64,000 nucleotides of DNA, taken from positions 6,315,107 to 6,379,106 of the forward strand of contig OX638329.1 in NCBI GenBank assembly GCA_951812755.1, given 5' to 3'. The notes under the pieces were generated by a model, which saw only the letters and a list, made by a program, of their open reading frames with translations, was not told the origin of the DNA and did no database searches. Positions within the stretch are counted from its first letter, which is position 1, and each line of letters starts with the position of its first letter. Origin of the DNA: an uncultured Latescibacterota bacterium (GTDB taxonomy: Bacteria > Latescibacterota > UBA2968). This document shows positions 4,085-64,000 of this stretch, piece by piece. Made by a program: the position numbers and the translations under genes.

Positions 4085-4091
4085 AATAATC

Positions 4092-4316
4092 TAAGAAGCT
4101 GTTTTAAAATTAATACCTGATGTTACGCATGTCAGGCGTTTTGTCATGCTGAGCGTAGCCGAAGCATCTTTTCCACCTGAGTTGGTAAGAGATGAACTGG
4201 CCTGAGAGGCGGCCAGTTGTACCCCGCTCCTTCGACTCCGCTGCGCTCCGCTCAGAATGACAGTGCAATAGAGCATAGCCAAGAAGGGGCAAAATGAGTT
4301 TTAAAACAGTCTCTTA
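4092..4316 (+). mobile_element. Miniature TA-flanked repeat, family A copy 1
   Basis: The left end reads TAAGAAGCTGTTTTAAAAT and the right end is the near inverse (AAAACAGTCTCTTA), so the element has about 20-bp terminal inverted repeats bounded by TA. The core carries the motif GTCATGCTGAGCGTAGCCGA and its near inverse. There is no transposase gene, so it is non-autonomous. It fills most of the gap between the first two surface-protein genes. Other copies are at 44932, 49486, 54691, 57732 and 63611. Confidence 0.8.
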
Positions 4317-4378
4317 GATGCTGTAACTGTTTTGTAGCGCGGTCTCTAACCGGTAACCCATTAAATTGGAGGGGAAAA

Positions 4379-21034: not shown

Positions 21035-21760
21035 ATGTATCAAATCCAGCCCTTGAGCAAAAATGATTTACATCACTATGCTACCTTTCTGAGAGATATT
21101 CAGACACAACATTGGTCCTTGTCTTCAAATGCTTTTCAAAGACAGCCAAACTCTGAATGCCTACCCAGTTATGAAGAAATCATTGAGAACTTGAGCAACT
21201 TAGAGCACTCGGTCATCTATTTACTCAAGCGAAATCACCGCATCATTTCATCCATGAAAGTAACCCAAAAGAAGTCTGAGCCAGGCATAGTCATTTTTTC
21301 CCATGTAGAAACCCATCCCGATTTTCAGAAACGCGGGATTTTCGGCCTTACACTGGCAGATACGTGTTTGAGAACCGCCTGTGAATCTGAGTGTAAACGT
21401 ATCGAAATTACGACCTGGTCGTTCAATCGAAAAGGGATTCCACTTTATAAACGCTATGGATTTCGTGCGATACCAGGCACCAATCTTTTGATGGAAAACT
21501 ACCTGCCAGCTATTGTGAAGCATATAGATGCACACCCCTATTTTGCTCGCCATGATTATATTCGCACACTCCAGAACAAACGCAGCTATGGGTATGATGC
21601 TGTTGAAATGAATGGCATAAGTGTCTTTGAGTATCGCTGGAGGCCAAGAAAGTCTGAGGACACATTGCGTGTATTGGTCGATTGGAAAAAGAAAGAAATC
21701 ATTGATGTGGAATGCAAGATCATGGATTCACCATCATTAGTTAGAGAATGTCATGCGTAG
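21035..21760 (+). CDS. GNAT-family N-acetyltransferase
   Basis: The middle of the 241-residue protein has the acetyl-CoA-binding motif A of GNAT enzymes (VETHPDFQKRGIFGLTL, with Q-K-R-G-x-F-G). It is followed by ITTWSFNRKGIPLYKRYGF, the usual motif B pattern in which YKRYGF closes the fold. The extra N- and C-terminal segments (about 75 and 80 residues) are not recognised. The gene starts 21 bp after the CPBP gene and overlaps the next start by 8 bp, implying translational coupling. It may acetylate a peptide or protein made by the cluster; the substrate is unknown. Confidence 0.8.
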   Translation: MYQIQPLSKNDLHHYATFLRDIQTQHWSLSSNAFQRQPNSECLPSYEEIIENLSNLEHSVIYLLKRNHRIISSMKVTQKKSEPGIVIFSHVETHPDFQKRGIFGLTLADTCLRTACESECKRIEITTWSFNRKGIPLYKRYGFRAIPGTNLLMENYLPAIVKHIDAHPYFARHDYIRTLQNKRSYGYDAVEMNGISVFEYRWRPRKSEDTLRVLVDWKKKEIIDVECKIMDSPSLVRECHA

Positions 21761-23960
21761 AGAAAATCCCTCTCAAATCCGGATTGCCATTGTCGATAGC
21801 GGCACAGATGTATCTCATATAGATGTGGGTGATGTTGCGGGTGGTGTTCATATTCAGATTGGTAAAGATGGTGAGACTGTGTTGTGGGATGATCACACCG
21901 ACTGTGCAGGACATGGCACAGCGTGTGCCGGGATTATCAGGAAGAAGGCTCCTGATGCGATGTTATATAGCGTGAGGATTTTTGATGCCTCATTGATGGC
22001 AGATGGGCGGGCGTTGATTGCGGCGATTCAGTGGTGCATTGACAATGAGATGGATGTGGTGAATTTAAGTCTGGGCACAACGGATGTGACGTTTAAGAAA
22101 GCTCTTCAGAAAGTGTGTCGCAAAGCGGTTGATGCTGGCGTGATTCTCGTGGCTGCTGAGAGCAATGACGGACGTGAGAGTTATCCTGCGGTATTTTCCG
22201 AAGTGATTGGTGTCACAGGTGGTGCGATCCATGAAGCAGATGGGTTTTACTACCGCAAAGATCAGCGCATCGAATGTGTAGCGCGAGGTGATGAACAGCG
22301 CGTGTGCTGGTTAAACGGAAAACATATTATGACGGGAGGAAATAGCTTTGCCGCACCCCATATCACGGGCATTATCGCACACCTGTTGGAACAAAATCCA
22401 AAATGTCCTGTTCAAGATATTCGGTTATTATTACAAGAAAAAGCATTAAGTGAAATTCCTCAAGAGCAAAATAGGTCCAAATTCGATCGTCCGGCGCACC
22501 GAAAAGATTTTCAAGACGATTATTCCTGGATTAAAAAAGCCGTGTTGTATCCGTATAACAAAGAGATGCACAGCATGGTGCGCTATCGCGAGTTACTCGC
22601 GTTTGAGATTGTTGGCGTCGCCGATCCCATTGGCAAAGGGATGGTGGGCAAAGATGCAGGCAAGGTGATTGGGGAACCTCATGCAAATCTGCGGATCAGT
22701 CCGAATATTCGCCAGGCTCTGATCAGCCTCACGGTCTTGTCCTTCGACACCCTGTTGGTTTTGATTTCGAGACGGTTTATCCACAAATATACAAGGGAAG
22801 TTGCAGAACGCTCAGCAGAGTTATCGGCAAAAAATTACGAGTCCATTTCTTCGATTAGAACAGTACAGTCTTTGGGGTTGGAGGCTTCATTTTTTCAGAA
22901 GCTACAGGGATTGTTCATCAATGTGGCAAATCTGAGAATGAAAGTATCGCTTTTTTCGGGCACAACGGGGTATGCCAGCACCATTATCAAGACTGGTGGA
23001 ACTCTTGCCTACGGTTTCTACGGATGGCACGAGGTGCTATCTGATAATTTGACATTGGGGAGTTATATGGCTTTTACGGGCTATGTGGGGTATTTGTATG
23101 GACCCATTAAAAGTCTCATTGGCCTGTTGCGGCGCATCGAATCTACACTGGTTCATACGGACCGCTTTTTTGAAGTCTATAATATCACGCCTGATATACG
23201 CGATGAACCGCAGTTGGCTGAGCTCAACGGGGTTCGTGAAGGGATAGAGTTTAGAGATGTCAGTTTTGCATATCAACCCGAAAGAGTGGTGTTAAATGAG
23301 ATCAATCTCGAGATCGGTGTCGATCAAACAGTTGCCATTGTTGGAAGAAGCGGGTCGGGCAAATCTACTCTGGCGAAGCTCATCCCGAGATTCTACGATC
23401 CAGTGGATGGACAGGTCTTGATCGATGGGGTCGATATCAGGCAATACCGTCTCAATTCTTTGCGCCAAAATATCGGCTTTGTGATGCAAGGAAGTGCCCT
23501 GTTTCAAGGAAGTATTTTGGAGAATTTGACGTTTAACAAACCGATTTCTATGATCGATGTCGAAGCCGCGACCCGGGCAGCCTATATCCACGATTTTGTC
23601 ACGAAGCTACCTAACGGCTATCACACGATCATCGGTGAGCAGGGGGCGCAACTTTCAGAGGGACAGAAGCAAAGGGTTGCACTTGCAAGGGTGTTATTGC
23701 AGAACACACCCATCTTAATTTTGGATGAACCCACTGCTGCATTGGATAACGAATCTGAGTTTTATATCCAGGAAGCGATGAAGGAAATTTGCAAACAAAG
23801 GACAGTGATCGTCATTGCCCATCGCCTATCAACGATCCGGCGTGCAGACAAAATCGTGGTCATTGATCAGGGAAGAATTGCCGAGGAAGGTAGCCACGAA
23901 GTTTTGATGCTGCAAGATGGCGTTTATGCCATGCTCCAGGAGCGAGCCGCGAGGATTTGA
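21753..23960 (+). CDS. Subtilisin-like protease fused in frame to a truncated ABC exporter
   Basis: Residues 1-240 are an S8 subtilase with an intact triad: Asp15 (IVDSGTD), His54 (GHGTACAG) and Ser198 (GNSFAAPH), plus oxyanion Asn138. Residues 258-308 begin an unrecognised Rossmann-like domain (FEIVGVADPIGKGMVGKDAG) that ends abruptly. From about residue 315 the chain is an ABC exporter: only the last ~3 transmembrane segments remain. They are followed by a complete ATPase with Walker A GRSGSGKS (531-538), signature LSEGQ (634), Walker B ILILDEP (654) and His690. Exporters need about six segments, so this looks like two genes joined by an in-frame deletion near 22680, or an assembly join. 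There is no signal peptide. Confidence 0.8.
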   Translation: MRRENPSQIRIAIVDSGTDVSHIDVGDVAGGVHIQIGKDGETVLWDDHTDCAGHGTACAGIIRKKAPDAMLYSVRIFDASLMADGRALIAAIQWCIDNEMDVVNLSLGTTDVTFKKALQKVCRKAVDAGVILVAAESNDGRESYPAVFSEVIGVTGGAIHEADGFYYRKDQRIECVARGDEQRVCWLNGKHIMTGGNSFAAPHITGIIAHLLEQNPKCPVQDIRLLLQEKALSEIPQEQNRSKFDRPAHRKDFQDDYSWIKKAVLYPYNKEMHSMVRYRELLAFEIVGVADPIGKGMVGKDAGKVIGEPHANLRISPNIRQALISLTVLSFDTLLVLISRRFIHKYTREVAERSAELSAKNYESISSIRTVQSLGLEASFFQKLQGLFINVANLRMKVSLFSGTTGYASTIIKTGGTLAYGFYGWHEVLSDNLTLGSYMAFTGYVGYLYGPIKSLIGLLRRIESTLVHTDRFFEVYNITPDIRDEPQLAELNGVREGIEFRDVSFAYQPERVVLNEINLEIGVDQTVAIVGRSGSGKSTLAKLIPRFYDPVDGQVLIDGVDIRQYRLNSLRQNIGFVMQGSALFQGSILENLTFNKPISMIDVEAATRAAYIHDFVTKLPNGYHTIIGEQGAQLSEGQKQRVALARVLLQNTPILILDEPTAALDNESEFYIQEAMKEICKQRTVIVIAHRLSTIRRADKIVVIDQGRIAEEGSHEVLMLQDGVYAMLQERAARI

Positions 23961-23961
23961 T

Positions 23962-24279
23962 ATGTTCAAAGCAAAGTACCCAAATTGTGGATGTAAAAAC
24001 GATTGGGGAGGATCATTTAAATGGTTTAATCCTCCTCGCACCTGGCCCTGTAAGCAATGTGGCTTCATGCTTGAAATGGATCGTAAAAGGGGGTTCGTAG
24101 TGCTACTCATATATGCGGCATTCTGGTTATTTTTTGAGTTCTGGGTCAAGGATTGGAGCTTTCTTGTCTATTATCTTCTGCCAGTTGGCATTTTTATCAT
24201 TCTTTCATTGAAGCGCGTTAAAATTGTGCAATCTTCAGACCAAAATTCTGATGCTGGTAGTCGAAAAAGCACCTCTTGA
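23962..24279 (+). CDS. Small zinc-ribbon membrane protein, copy 1
   Basis: The ATG is 1 bp after the exporter's stop codon, with GAGG upstream. The 105-residue protein has an N-terminal cysteine cluster (CGC at 9-11, CKQC at 30-33) and WPCKQCG. Two hydrophobic segments (about 45-62 and 67-82) and a charged tail follow. It is a diverged paralogue of the proteins at 24839 and 25170: the first Cys of the CPxCG knuckle is Tyr here, with Cys11 possibly compensating. I do not recognise the family. Tight linkage to the subtilase/ABC gene suggests a role in the same system. Confidence 0.7.
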   Translation: MFKAKYPNCGCKNDWGGSFKWFNPPRTWPCKQCGFMLEMDRKRGFVVLLIYAAFWLFFEFWVKDWSFLVYYLLPVGIFIILSLKRVKIVQSSDQNSDAGSRKSTS

Positions 24280-24379
24280 CAAGGAAAGGGGGTAAATGAG
24301 AGATCACTGCACGGTGCTTTGTTCATGGTGAATGGAAAACATTCACTGATTTCTAATTTTTATATCATTGGAGGATCAC

Positions 24380-24559
24380 ATGCAAAAGCTGGTGAAAAGA
24401 AGGATGCATTACGAGCTCATTATGCCTGTTGAGGCTTATGAGGAAGAGAATAATAATGATGATTTGGTGCAGGATCTGATTAGTATTGGTATCACTGTTG
24501 CGGGGGTAGTCACTGGATTCGTAACTAGTGCATCGTGGCGTAAGTCTTGCGACATATAG
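24380..24559 (+). pseudogene. Small acidic peptide gene interrupted by a miniature element
   Basis: The ATG at 24380 has TTGGAGG about 6 bp upstream. The present frame gives 59 residues: a basic start (MQKLVKRR), an acidic stretch EEENNNDD, then LISIGITVAGVVTG and VTS. The last nine residues (ASWRKSCDI) come from an inserted repeat that begins near 24526. Removing the 154-bp insert continues the frame to 24734 as VTSDIDIDYDDPLVQAYGE and gives a 66-residue peptide. The size, charged leader-like half and Gly/Val-rich middle resemble a precursor peptide next to an exporter gene, but I recognise no known class. Confidence 0.65.
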
Positions 24560-24681
24560 AAGTGAACATCAAAACCTTCTGGATTACTGGCGTTGTGCTT
24601 GCGCGTGGCGGCTTAAACCATGCCGCAATGACAACCGCAAGTCAAATTGATATGACCAGTTTCTTTTGCCGAGATGCACTA
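24526..24681 (+). mobile_element. Miniature TA-flanked repeat, family B copy 1
   Basis: The element lies between two TA dinucleotides. Its ends are GTGCATC...GATGCAC, and the identity extends imperfectly inward (GTGGCGTAA against CGGCAAAAG). The flanking ACTAGT is present on both sides, so target duplication and inverted repeat overlap. Copies of the same element lie at 52899-53203 (two, nested) and 57958-58078. It carries no gene. It interrupts the small peptide gene at 24380. Confidence 0.8.
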
Positions 24682-24838
24682 GTGACATTGACATTGACTA
24701 CGACGACCCACTCGTACAAGCATATGGCGAATAAGGAACGCCAAAGTTGGGTATCTTGATGGTTGCAGGTATTGTACTCTTGTATATCTGAGTGCAATAC
24801 CTGCTAAATTCTTTCATCCAGGATGGAGGACCTAAGAT

Positions 24839-25150
24839 ATGCTAAGAAATATAAAAAACATTTGTACCTGTCCAAAATGCGGACATTCCGTTGGATGGCG
24901 TCGCAAATTATTTACCGGTATATTGGCTCAATGGCCCTGTAAGAATTGCGGTACGGCCCTGGAATTTGGCCTCAATAGATACCCAATATTGCTCCCTGTG
25001 GTTATCATACCAATCAATTTATGGGTTACGCCTCATGTAGATTTTTGGGTCTCTGCGGTAATAAACGGTTTAGGGATATTTTTTGTAAGTTTTATAAGTT
25101 TAGTAGTTGTAGAGAAGTATGAACCACCCCATCGGCATGATGCAAAGTGA
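24839..25150 (+). CDS. Small zinc-ribbon membrane protein, copy 2
   Basis: GGAGGACC precedes the ATG. The 103-residue protein has the pattern CPKCGHSVGWRRKL followed after about 10 residues by WPCKNCG, giving two Cys-x2-Cys knuckles that would bind one zinc ion. Two hydrophobic segments cover about residues 52-85, and a short charged tail follows. It shares most of its zinc-ribbon residues with the protein at 25170, so the pair arose by tandem duplication. No enzymatic motif is seen. Confidence 0.75.
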   Translation: MLRNIKNICTCPKCGHSVGWRRKLFTGILAQWPCKNCGTALEFGLNRYPILLPVVIIPINLWVTPHVDFWVSAVINGLGIFFVSFISLVVVEKYEPPHRHDAK

Positions 25151-25169
25151 GAGATTGGAGTCCCAATAT

Positions 25170-25475
25170 ATGCCAATAAACATAAAAAGCATTTACACCT
25201 GTCCAAAATGCGGACATTCCGTTGGATGGCGACGCAAGTTGAGTGCTAACATCTTCAGTATATGGCCCTGCAAGAATTGCGGTACGCCTTTGGGTTTTGG
25301 TTCTGTGAGACGCCTGATTTTAGTTTCTATATTTACCTTTTCAACCGCGTTATGGCTTAAACCTCATGTGAATTTTTGGGTCTTTTGGGTAATCTTTGCT
25401 TCAGGAATGATCGTTGCAGGATATGTTGATCCAGTTGTTGAGAAGCAGGAACCACAGCGGCCTGATGCAGAGTAA
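25170..25475 (+). CDS. Small zinc-ribbon membrane protein, copy 3
   Basis: ATG at 25170 is preferred because TTGGAG lies 9 bp upstream and the N-terminus then aligns with copy 2. The 101-residue protein repeats CPKCGHSVGWRRKL and WPCKNCGTPL, followed by two hydrophobic segments and a charged tail ending PDAE. The gene starts 19 bp after copy 2. The zinc-ribbon DNA is almost identical between the two copies, while the membrane halves have diverged. The conserved part is therefore under constraint or was recently converted. Confidence 0.75.
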   Translation: MPINIKSIYTCPKCGHSVGWRRKLSANIFSIWPCKNCGTPLGFGSVRRLILVSIFTFSTALWLKPHVNFWVFWVIFASGMIVAGYVDPVVEKQEPQRPDAE

Positions 25476-25617
25476 GTGTGTTTGGTGCGAAAATATATGC
25501 CAATTGAGGGTCAAGAGAACGTGGGATGTGGATCGTATTCTGAAGATTATTACCTTGTTAGATGATATTTCTCAAAGGGAAGAGTGCGTTCTGAAGAATG
25601 TTTTGAAGGCGCTTTGA
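25465..25617 (+). CDS. Possible 50-residue protein overlapping copy 3 (doubtful)
   Basis: An ATG at 25465 overlaps the preceding stop codon and opens 50 codons containing MQSKCVWCENICQLRV and a leucine-rich C-terminal half. The overlap and the two Cys residues hint at a real small gene, but there is no clear RBS and no family match. It is listed because it ends just where the second sigma-54 control region begins. Confidence 0.25.
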   Translation: MQSKCVWCENICQLRVKRTWDVDRILKIITLLDDISQREECVLKNVLKAL

Positions 25618-44300: not shown

Positions 44301-44934
44301 ACTTTGGGCAAAACTGCAAGATAAAGAATATCGAGATGGTTACGTCGAAGGGCAATTTGACATTGAGGTGCCTTTCCAAATCCGGGCACTTCGTCAAGCA
44401 AGAGGATGGACACAAGAAGATCTTGCTAAGTATAGTGGTCTTCCTGAGAGCCAAATAGCTGAAATGGAGGATCCTAATTGTGATCCTCCATCGGTACAAA
44501 TGCTACATAAACTTTGTGCTGCATTTGACGTGGGACTACTGATACAATTTGTTCCATTTAGTGAGATGGTTGAACGAGAGTCGAATTTTCATCCAGAAAC
44601 CTTTAATGTTGCCAGTTTTTCAGAGGACCAATTTTCAGTTGCTAATATCTTGCGTGACTCTTTGCGTAGTATGAGGCAAGATTTGGAAGTAATATCTGAA
44701 AAAGAAACTAAAATTATAAAAGACGCTTGGAACGAAATAGACCTTGAGTCTTTGTGTAAAGAGATTCCTTTGAAACCAAATACCAAACATATAATACAAG
44801 GGCACTCCACGACCAAAGATGTAAAAATTTATCAGGTTCATCAATTTATGCACGAGCACGAAACTCAAGAAATAGAGACCAATATCGTAAATACGGATTT
44901 AGATTATCATCAACTGAAGGGACTAAATGTCTAA
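44278..44934 (+). CDS. HigA-like antitoxin with long C-terminal extension
   Basis: The start at 44278 is chosen because GGGGAG lies upstream and the HTH begins near residue 35. Residues 30-85 form a Cro/CI-type helix-turn-helix (IRALRQARGWTQEDLAKYSG). The remaining ~130 residues are an unrecognised extension, longer than in usual HigA. It ends exactly at the TA of a family A repeat, whose TA belongs to the TAA stop codon. Excision leaves the same stop codon, so the protein is not truncated by it. Confidence 0.8.
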   Translation: MNLNSMSELWAKLQDKEYRDGYVEGQFDIEVPFQIRALRQARGWTQEDLAKYSGLPESQIAEMEDPNCDPPSVQMLHKLCAAFDVGLLIQFVPFSEMVERESNFHPETFNVASFSEDQFSVANILRDSLRSMRQDLEVISEKETKIIKDAWNEIDLESLCKEIPLKPNTKHIIQGHSTTKDVKIYQVHQFMHEHETQEIETNIVNTDLDYHQLKGLNV

Positions 44935-45213
44935 GAAGCTGTTTTAAAATTAATACCTGATGTTACGCATGTCCGGCGTTTTGTCATGCTGAGCGTAGCC
45001 GAAGCATCTTTTCCACCTGAGTTGGTAAGAGATGAACTGGCCTGAGGATGGTGTACAACGAGCCGCTTTTCAGGCTCGTTCACCGGCCAGTTGTACCCCG
45101 CTCCTTCGACTCCGCTGCGCGGAGTTTATCTTGAGCGAAGCCGAAAGGCTCAGAATGACAGGGCAATAGCGCATCGCCGAGAAGGGGCAAAATGAGTTTT
45201 AAAACAGTCTCTA
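44932..45213 (+). mobile_element. Miniature TA-flanked repeat, family A copy 2
   Basis: Left end TAAGAAGCTGTTTTAAAATTAATACC at the antitoxin stop, right end ...GTTTTAAAACAGTCTCTA. The insertion target TA belongs to the TAA stop codon of the antitoxin. Without the element, the GvpU-like gene would start about 23 bp after that stop codon. Confidence 0.8.
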
Positions 45214-45237
45214 AGACATACAAGGGAAATATATTCC

Positions 45238-49463: not shown

Positions 49464-49485
49464 GGACAAGTAACCCGTGTTTTTC

Positions 49486-49743
49486 TAAGAGACTGTTTTA
49501 AAACTCATTTTGCCCCTTCTCGGCGATGCGCTATTGCCCTGTCATTCTGAGCGGAGCGCAGCGGAGTCGAAGGAGCGGGGTACAACTGGCCGGTGAACGA
49601 GCCTGAAAAGCGGCTCGTTGTACACCATCCTCAGGCCAGTTCATCTCTTACCAACTCAGGTGGAAAAGATGCTTCGGCTACGCTCAGCATGACAAAACGC
49701 CGGACATGCGTAACATCAGGTATTAATTTTAAAACAGCTTCTA
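49486..49743 (-). mobile_element. Miniature TA-flanked repeat, family A copy 3, inserted in a nucleotidyltransferase gene
   Basis: The element runs reversed, from TAAGAGACTG to TTAATTTTAAAACAGCTTCTA, with the usual core. It is bounded by TA (49486-49487 and 49742-49743). On the minus strand it begins inside the gene ending at 49631 and supplies its new stop codon. Excision restores the original end at 49456. Confidence 0.85.
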
Positions 49744-50020
49744 AGAAACTGGAGAGATGTGTTTCATTATCCAGATTGATGAGGTCAACGGGGTGATTCA
49801 ATTGCATTAGAAGCTTTCCGAATAATGAAAAGAAATGTTGTGGTGGACAGCCTCGAACCCCGATATCAATATCTGAACCTTTGCGTGACCGACCTTCTGC
49901 CAAAGATCCGAAGAGATGTATCTCTCGACAGCCGCCCGCCTTCAGTATTTCTATGGCCTGTCTGATATCTTCCTGATATTCGGCAGGAAATAGGCTCAAT
50001 TCTGATACATGCGGTTTCAT
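49631..50020 (-). CDS. MNT-type nucleotidyltransferase with repeat-derived C-terminus
   Basis: The ATG overlaps the M16 protease stop codon. The 129-residue frame has the nucleotidyltransferase motif FGSLAEGRSRKGSDIDIGV, with Gly-Ser and Asp-x-Asp. Up to THLSSFL it is native. From then on, EAVLKLIPDVTHV... is encoded by a family A repeat that begins at the TA of TTA. Taking the repeat out, the frame continues SSFLEKHGLLVHG and stops at 49456, overlapping the next start. That end fits the family pattern. MNT proteins are antitoxins of HEPN systems or modify RNA or proteins. No HEPN gene is adjacent here. Confidence 0.82.
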   Translation of the reverse strand: MKPHVSELSLFPAEYQEDIRQAIEILKAGGCREIHLFGSLAEGRSRKGSDIDIGVRGCPPQHFFSLFGKLLMQLNHPVDLINLDNETHLSSFLEAVLKLIPDVTHVRRFVMLSVAEASFPPELVRDELA

Positions 50021-54658: not shown

Positions 54659-54690
54659 GTTTCCTCCTGATTGGTTCTCGCTTTGGACTT

Positions 54691-54879
54691 TAGAAGCTGT
54701 TTTAAAATTAATACCTGATGTTACGCATGTCAGGCGTTTTGTCATGCTGAGCGTAGCCGAAGCATCTTTTCCACCTAAGTTGGTAAGAGATTCTTCGACT
54801 CCGCTACGCTCCGCTCAGAATGACAGCGCAATAGCGCATAGCTAAGAAGGGGCAAAATGAGTTTTAAAACAGTCTCTTA
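54691..54879 (+). mobile_element. Miniature TA-flanked repeat, family A copy 4
   Basis: The left end is TAGAAGCTGTTTTAAAATT and the right end GTTTTAAAACAGTCTCTTA. It lies just upstream of proA on the minus strand, so it is in the proA promoter region. The shorter length (189 bp) comes from a deletion in the core. Confidence 0.8.
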
Positions 54880-54909
54880 AAAAAGTTTTATCGCATGACG
54901 AATAGGTTT

Positions 54910-63235: not shown

Positions 63236-63613
63236 ATGGCGCGCATCACAGTTGCCAGGGTCTCGGAGATACCGCCCGGGCAGCGCAAAATTGTGGTGCC
63301 ATTTCGCGGGCGCGCCGGGATTGGCATTTTTAATGTCGGGGGGTCGTTTTACGCGGTTCGCAATATCTGTCCGCACAAGAATGGTCCGCTTTGTACCGGG
63401 ACACTCGGCGGTCGGGTGACGACTCAGGTGCCGCCTTCCACGCGGGGAGGCGAAATTTCTATTGATGGCGATGGCGAGATTTTGCACTGCCCATGGCATC
63501 AGTGGTCTTTTGAAATTTCAACAGGACGCTGTCTGGTGGATCCCGAGGTGTATGTCAAGACTTACGCGGTAGAAATTGACGGCGATGATGTTGTCGTCAC
63601 TTATGAGGACTAA
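63236..63613 (+). CDS. Rieske-type [2Fe-2S] protein
   Basis: The ATG follows the preceding stop codon directly. The 125-residue protein has the Rieske ligands Cys45-x-His47 (NICPHKNG) and Cys85-x2-His88 (HCPWHQW), with about 37 residues between the pairs, which is long. It would pass electrons to an oxygenase component, which is not in the window unless it is the next gene. The stop codon TAA at 63611 is the target of a family A repeat. Confidence 0.88.
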   Translation: MARITVARVSEIPPGQRKIVVPFRGRAGIGIFNVGGSFYAVRNICPHKNGPLCTGTLGGRVTTQVPPSTRGGEISIDGDGEILHCPWHQWSFEISTGRCLVDPEVYVKTYAVEIDGDDVVVTYED

Positions 63614-63984
63614 GAGACTGTTTTAAAACTCATTTTGCCCCTTCTCGGCGACGCGCTATTGCCCTGTCATTCTGAGCGGAGCGCAGCGGAGTCGAAGGAG
63701 TGGGGTATAACTGCGTAGCAGTTCATCTCTTACCAACTCAGGTGGAAAAGATGCTTCGGCTACGCTCAGCATGACAAAACGCCGGACATGCGTAACATCA
63801 GGTATTAAGTGACGTTACGCATAGGCACAATATAATGCGATAATGCGCCTGTCATTCTGAGCGTAGCGCAGCGGAGTCGAAGAATCTTCTACCAACTCAG
63901 GTGGAAAAGATGCTTCGGCTACGCTCAGCATGACAAAAACGCAGACATGCGTAACATCAGGTATTAATTTTAAAACAGCTTCTA
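63611..63984 (+). mobile_element. Miniature TA-flanked repeat, family A copy 6 (long form)
   Basis: Starting at the TAA of the Rieske stop, TAAGAGACTGTTTTAAAACTC runs to AATTTTAAAACAGCTTCTA. At 374 bp it is the longest copy and contains two partial cores in tandem. Excision would leave GAC-TAAGGAGAAATAAAATGG, so the RBS of the next gene would directly follow the stop codon. Confidence 0.8.
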
Positions 63985-64000
63985 AGGAGAAATAAAATGG
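63985..64000 (+). promoter_or_regulatory. RBS and start codon of the next gene (ATG at 63997)
   Basis: AAGGAG at 63984-63989 lies about 7 bp before ATG at 63997-63999, and only the first codon is inside the window. It probably belongs to the amidohydrolase-Rieske operon. The product is unknown. Confidence 0.6.

What the first reader, a model, noticed from the sequence alone, without database searches (positions are those of the whole stretch)
24380..24734. Excising a miniature element restores a 66-residue peptide gene
A family B element (24526-24681) sits between repeated ACTAGT/TA flanks. Its removal by 154 bp joins GTA-ACT-AGT to GAC-ATT-GAC in frame. The restored end is VTSDIDIDYDDPLVQAYGE followed by TAA, with no stops in between. 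This shows a recent insertion into a real gene, and it recovers the natural precursor-like peptide.
Basis: seen in the sequence. Interest (0 to 1): 0.75.

Follow-up and report, generated by a model that had tools for sequence, protein, structure and literature searches.

The report
Miniature transposon splits decayed peptide gene
A 150-base mobile element sits inside a small exported-peptide gene of a Latescibacterota bacterium; removing it on paper joins the gene in frame, but intact relatives encode a peptide twice as long, and the part missing here falls exactly where the element sits, in a gene cluster that is already breaking down.

Summary
The sequence observation is correct. A 150-bp miniature element (24529-24678), flanked by a 4-bp CTAG duplication, interrupts an ORF that starts at 24380. 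Dropping the element plus one CTAG gives 66 codons in frame. It belongs to a family of about 50-60 copies in this 6.53-Mb genome; 31 of 36 measured copies have identical 4-bp NTAN-type duplications. Three species of the genus carry the gene uninterrupted, so it is real: leader and ribosome-binding site are conserved, two of the three share the C-terminal tail, and leader changes among them are all synonymous. But those genes encode 126-141 aa, not 66. About 60 core codons are absent here, and the break falls at the element boundary: left-path identity drops from 54% to 24% and right-path identity rises from 29% to 67% there. So the 66-residue product is either an already shortened gene that was then hit, or an artefact of element-associated deletion; the data cannot decide. 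The locus is a degraded relative of TIGR04066-type peptide-maturation clusters: the exporter has lost 160 residues and is fused to a truncated subtilase, no HlyD gene was seen, and only a scrap of a BtrH_N-like protein remains. An ordinary insertion in a decaying locus; the peptide family itself is undescribed.

The parts
24370..24374 (+). GGAGG ribosome-binding site of the peptide gene
   Evidence: The GGAGGATCAC block before the ATG is identical in G006, G001 and G004
24380..24524 (+). 5' part of the peptide gene (leader MQKLVKRRMHYELIMPVEAY plus N-terminal core, ending ...GFV + first base of the next codon)
   Evidence: 67% identity to G006 over residues 1-49; leader changes among the three relatives all synonymous
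24525..24528 (+). left CTAG target-site duplication
24529..24678 (+). 150-bp miniature inverted-repeat element (ends TGCATC...GATGCA); supplies an in-frame stop at 24557-24559
   Evidence: about 60 matches in the genome; family present in all 11 genomes of the genus
24679..24682 (+). right CTAG target-site duplication
24683..24734 (+). 3' part of the peptide gene (tail DIDIDYDDPLVQAYGE, stop TAA)
   Evidence: homologous in frame to DIDQDDPMVQLYGE (G006) and SIDHDDPIVQLYGE (G001); downstream DNA strongly conserved
24380..24559 (+). present-day interrupted ORF, 59 aa, last residues read from the element
21753..23960 (+). chimeric ORF: subtilase and start of a TIGR04066-like domain (residues 1 to about 317) fused in frame to residues 161-578 of the dedicated ABC exporter
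23917..24279 (+). zinc-ribbon membrane-protein gene upstream of the peptide gene, conserved in relatives
   Evidence: 88 / 74 / 61% identity to G006 / G001 / G004
24839..25475 (+). two tandem zinc-ribbon membrane-protein genes (24839-25150, 25119-25475)
25414..25617 (+). ORF holding the last ~35 residues of a BtrH_N-like protein, a deletion remnant
   Evidence: 88.6% identity to the C-terminus of the G006 344-aa protein

Best explanation
A non-autonomous transposable element (MITE), which duplicates 4 bp of NTAN target sequence on insertion, sits in the gene for a leader-core-tail peptide that is exported and probably matured by a dedicated ABC exporter / subtilase / acyl-carrier locus. It stops translation about ten residues past the break, so the gene is now inactive (shown: conserved gene, element, duplication, stop; inferred: function as an exported precursor). 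The gene had lost, or lost in the same series of events, about 60 core codons, and the locus around it is degraded. The 66-residue joined reading frame is therefore not the form seen in any relative.
For: Sequence and frame. Element family and 4-bp duplication. Independent control of the excision rule: copy L010 lies in a gene of ~40-residue tandem repeats, and removing the element plus one CTAG restores the repeat period (GACACCTAGGGGGATCACC against the intact neighbouring repeat GACACCTACAGGGATCACC). Uninterrupted orthologues of 127, 126 and 141 aa in G006, G001 and G004, with related neighbours. Missing core and its position. Purifying selection on the leader. Decay of the locus: exporter lacks residues 1-160, next-best exporter in this genome only 36% identical; subtilase chimera and BtrH_N remnant; only a 68-position stub of the TIGR04066 domain here. 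Peptide-maturation context.
Against: No empty-site strain is available, so the order of events is not shown. The core is variable even between relatives, so a natural short form cannot be excluded. The chimeric ABC/subtilase ORF is open and could still have a role. No transcript or product is known.
Confidence: 0.88

Rival explanations
1. Simple history: a genuine, functional 66-codon gene existed and one element inserted into its CTAG; the short core is this species' natural form or an earlier in-frame deletion. (A sub-history of the best explanation.)
For: Perfect CTAG duplication and in-frame join; most copies in this genome are simple insertions (31 of 36); cores differ strongly between species.
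Against: All three relatives are 126-141 aa. The position of the missing core coincides with the element when the left flank is compared with G006 and with G004; by chance the best split would fall in that zone roughly one time in ten (my estimate). G001's left core is too divergent to place the break.
Confidence: 0.48
2. Element-associated deletion: either two copies inserted at separate CTAG sites in a full-length gene and recombined, or one copy caused an adjacent deletion. About 60 codons were lost and one element remains, flanked by CTAG from two different places; the 66-codon gene never existed. (A sub-history of the best explanation.)
For: Break maps to the element boundary: left-path identity to G006 54% before and 24% after it; right-path 29% before and 67% after it. 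CTAG is the commonest site (16 of 31), so two independent sites would match about one time in three (sum of squared frequencies 0.34). The locus shows other large deletions.
Against: Only 5 of 36 copies have unmatched duplications, so recombinants look uncommon. It also needs a one-in-three chance of an in-frame join and more events.
Confidence: 0.42
3. The small ORF is not a gene and the in-frame join is chance.
For: One join in three is in frame by chance; none of the peptides matches a known family.
Against: Conserved leader, ribosome-binding site, tail and neighbours in relatives, with only synonymous leader changes among them.
Confidence: 0.02
4. The element is a regulatory or domesticated insertion that gives the peptide gene a new useful 59-aa product.
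For: The truncated ORF keeps the leader; the element carries inverted ends.
Against: The tail is lost, the exporter is truncated, folding of the element is unremarkable (z = -1.9), and the family is dispersed as ordinary copies.
Confidence: 0.03

Closest known systems
Bacterial MITEs with a 4-bp NTAN (CTAG-type) target duplication
   Same: Short, non-coding, inverted ends, many copies, precise 4-bp duplication, insertion into genes
   Different: No autonomous partner was looked for beyond end-pattern scans; the IS family that moves it is not assigned. The 4-bp YTAR/CTAN preference recalls the IS5 group, from my own knowledge, not tested.
TIGR04066 / TIGR04069 peptide-maturation systems, e.g. 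the SacP23 (CLI_3235 family) cluster of Paenibacillus polymyxa (PMC10731318)
   Same: ABC exporter, subtilase, TIGR04066-like domain, acyl-carrier-type protein, small precursor-like gene with a leader of about 20 residues
   Different: Here the TIGR04066-like part is fused behind the subtilase and scores below the family cut-off; no radical-SAM gene was seen among the neighbours examined; a BtrH_N-like protein and HlyD are present in relatives; peptides are 126 aa or more and not Cys-rich
QhpE-type subtilisin-like proteases
   Same: Subtilase domain matches NF049966 over its length
   Different: Below the curated cut-off (156 against 165 bits); fused to other domains

Membership tests
MITE (miniature inverted-repeat transposable element) | Short, multi-copy, without a transposase gene | tested here: met
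   150 / 128 bp forms, about 60 matches in G000
MITE (miniature inverted-repeat transposable element) | Terminal inverted repeats | tested here: met
   TGCATC...GATGCA in most copies
MITE (miniature inverted-repeat transposable element) | Target-site duplication of fixed length | tested here: met
   31 of 36 copies identical 4 bp
MITE (miniature inverted-repeat transposable element) | Mobilised by a named transposase that recognises the ends | not tested
   End-pattern scans were run, but no transposase was sought between matching ends
TIGR04066-type peptide-maturation system | TIGR04066 protein above cut-off | tested here: not met
   Relatives reach 148-150 of 200 bits over the whole model; the window keeps only positions 1-68
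TIGR04066-type peptide-maturation system | Acyl-carrier-related protein TIGR04069 | tested here: inconclusive
   ACP present in G006 and at the contig end of G001; TIGR04069 only E = 0.0045, below cut-off
TIGR04066-type peptide-maturation system | Precursor of the CLI_3235 family | tested here: not met
   No match in NCBIfam at E up to 10
RiPP precursor (general) | Leader cleaved and core modified | not testable with these tools
   Conserved leader and exporter linkage only

The most novel reading that the evidence does not exclude
Latescibacterota use a new kind of ribosomal peptide system: small leader-bearing peptides with rapidly diverging cores, each next to a dedicated ABC/HlyD exporter, a subtilase-TIGR04066 fusion, an acyl-carrier protein and a BtrH_N-like protein, hence possibly acylated, without a radical-SAM enzyme. 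The window shows one such locus dying by deletion and MITE insertion.
Probability: 0.35. Interest if true: 0.6.

Novelty: new member of a known kind. Interest (0 to 1): 0.33.

Why it matters
It shows that an in-silico 'restored' gene can mislead: only comparison with intact relatives revealed that half of the peptide is missing at the insertion point. It also points to an undescribed family of exporter-linked peptides in Latescibacterota, with intact examples in named records (JAJEHL010000015.1, JAJEDY010000022.1) that would be better targets for study than this broken copy.

Tried and rejected
Duplication as ACTAGT (6 bp) or TA (2 bp): rejected, other copies show exactly 4 bp. Tail alignment in which the left-flank 'GFV' equals the relatives' 'DFVG' just before the tail: considered, but the best-scoring split lies at the element. 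Reading the 735-aa ORF as a natural subtilase-ABC exporter fusion: rejected as ancestral, since G001 carries a separate full-length 578-aa exporter and separate subtilases; the window ORF lacks exporter residues 1-160. Search of viral contigs for the peptide family and for the exact 21-nt empty site: nothing. Peptide against Pfam and NCBIfam: nothing meaningful. Element as a structured RNA: z = -1.9, unremarkable.

Full report
Observation. The window is G000:C1:6315107-6379106 of a single-contig 6.53-Mb genome; two relatives are named as Candidatus Latescibacterota MAGs. The ORF starting at 24380 ends at a stop inside the element at 24557-24559 (59 aa). The repeated ACTAGT at 24524 and 24678 was confirmed; removing 154 bp joins GTA-ACT-AGT to GAC-ATT-GAC and gives 66 codons plus TAA.

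The element. It has about 60 matches in this genome and relatives in all 11 genomes of the genus, with the closest copies 97-98% identical. Aligning the ends of many copies shows a core of 150 or 128 bp with ends TGCATC...GATGCA, flanked by 4 bp that are identical in 31 of 36 copies: CTAG 16, GTAG 6, CTAC 6, others 3. Here the duplication is CTAG, and the element is 24529-24678. A control for the excision rule comes from copy L010, which interrupts a gene of ~40-residue tandem repeats: dropping element plus one CTAG restores the repeat period exactly.

The gene is real. Three congeners, G006, G001 and G004, have it uninterrupted. All share the ribosome-binding site and the 20-residue leader. 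The leader differs among them only by synonymous changes; the window copy has two amino-acid changes (R for K at 8, L for T at 13) relative to them. G006 and G001 share the tail ID.DDP.VQLYGE, which the window has behind the element in the right frame; G004 has a different C-terminus.

But the natural peptide is not 66 residues. The relatives encode 127, 126 and 141 aa. I compared the joined window sequence with the relatives base by base. Left of the element it follows the N-terminal core of G006 (54% in the last 24 bases, against a background near 25%), and the match falls to 24% past the element. The path anchored at the C-terminus rises from 29% to 67% at the same point. The best split lies at joined position 147-157 with G006 as left reference and 146-160 with G004; the element boundary is 149. 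G001's core is too divergent on the left to place the break. About 60 core codons are thus missing at the element.

Two histories fit. Either the gene was already short and took one insertion (perfect duplication, in frame), or the loss was caused by the element, through recombination between two copies or an adjacent deletion. In the second case the flanking CTAGs would still agree about one time in three (0.34 from the observed frequencies), and the join would be in frame one time in three. In the first case the coincidence of position has to be chance, roughly one in ten. These are rough estimates of mine; I leave the two about level, with the simple history slightly ahead because unmatched duplications are uncommon (5 of 36).

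Surroundings. In G001 the order is response regulator, HlyD-type protein, full ABC exporter (578 aa), zinc-ribbon protein, peptide, three zinc-ribbon proteins, subtilase-TIGR04066 fusion, acyl-carrier protein (domain names taken in part from the G006 counterparts). In the window the exporter keeps only residues 161-578 (96% identity) and is fused in frame to a subtilase cut in its TIGR04066-like domain. A scrap of a BtrH_N-like protein remains at 25414-25617, and no HlyD gene was seen between the response regulator and the chimera. G004's exporter carries an in-frame TAG. So the window locus is decayed, and the insertion is one lesion among several. Elsewhere in this genome another TIGR04066-like protein and a BtrH_N-like protein lie within about 4 kb of each other (2192962 and 2195952).

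Comparison with the known. The nearest described system is the TIGR04066/TIGR04069 peptide-maturation cluster, such as SacP23 of Paenibacillus polymyxa with exporter, TIGR04066, ACP-related protein, subtilase and radical SAM (PMC10731318). The relatives here score below the family cut-off and have non-Cys-rich, longer peptides, so I do not file this locus as a member; it may work similarly. Paralogous exporter loci in G002, G006, G007, G009 and G010 are each followed by a different small ORF of about 130-185 aa whose N-terminus looks leader-like, often ending in an aromatic-...-(A/L/D)Y pattern; this last point is by eye.

Verdict. Observation confirmed; interpretation partly supported. An ordinary MITE insertion in a real but decaying peptide gene, whose 66-residue 'restored' form has no counterpart in relatives.

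Noticed in passing
window 21753-23960: In-frame chimera of a subtilase / TIGR04066-like fragment with the C-terminal 418 residues of an ABC exporter; catalytic motifs DSG, GHGT and GNSFA are kept.
   Followed up: partly
G000:C1:6291938-6292621: Head-to-tail array of five elements of this family sharing duplication sites; similar arrays at 6236302-6236656 and 6439294-6439692.
   Followed up: no
L010 (G000:C1:4756675-4756810): Another copy interrupts a gene of ~40-residue tandem repeats (GITYANDRFYVV...) and removal restores the repeat register.
   Followed up: yes
L063-L069 (G009, G007, G006, G002, G010): Paralogous exporter loci, each followed by an unrelated small ORF of about 130-185 aa with leader-like N-terminus, often with a CAAX-type protease and TPR protein next to it.
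   Followed up: partly
window 24571-24638 (inside the element): The middle of the element, GGCGGCTTAAACCATGCCGC..., occurs alone in genomes across the genus, like an independent REP-type repeat captured inside the element.
   Followed up: no
window 23917-25475: Zinc-ribbon membrane-protein genes in variable numbers around the peptide gene in different species; possible immunity genes.
   Followed up: no
window 4090-4318, 44930-45226, 49474-49746, 54690-54884, 63610-63986: A second dispersed repeat family with direct and inverted copies at up to 99% identity.
   Followed up: no
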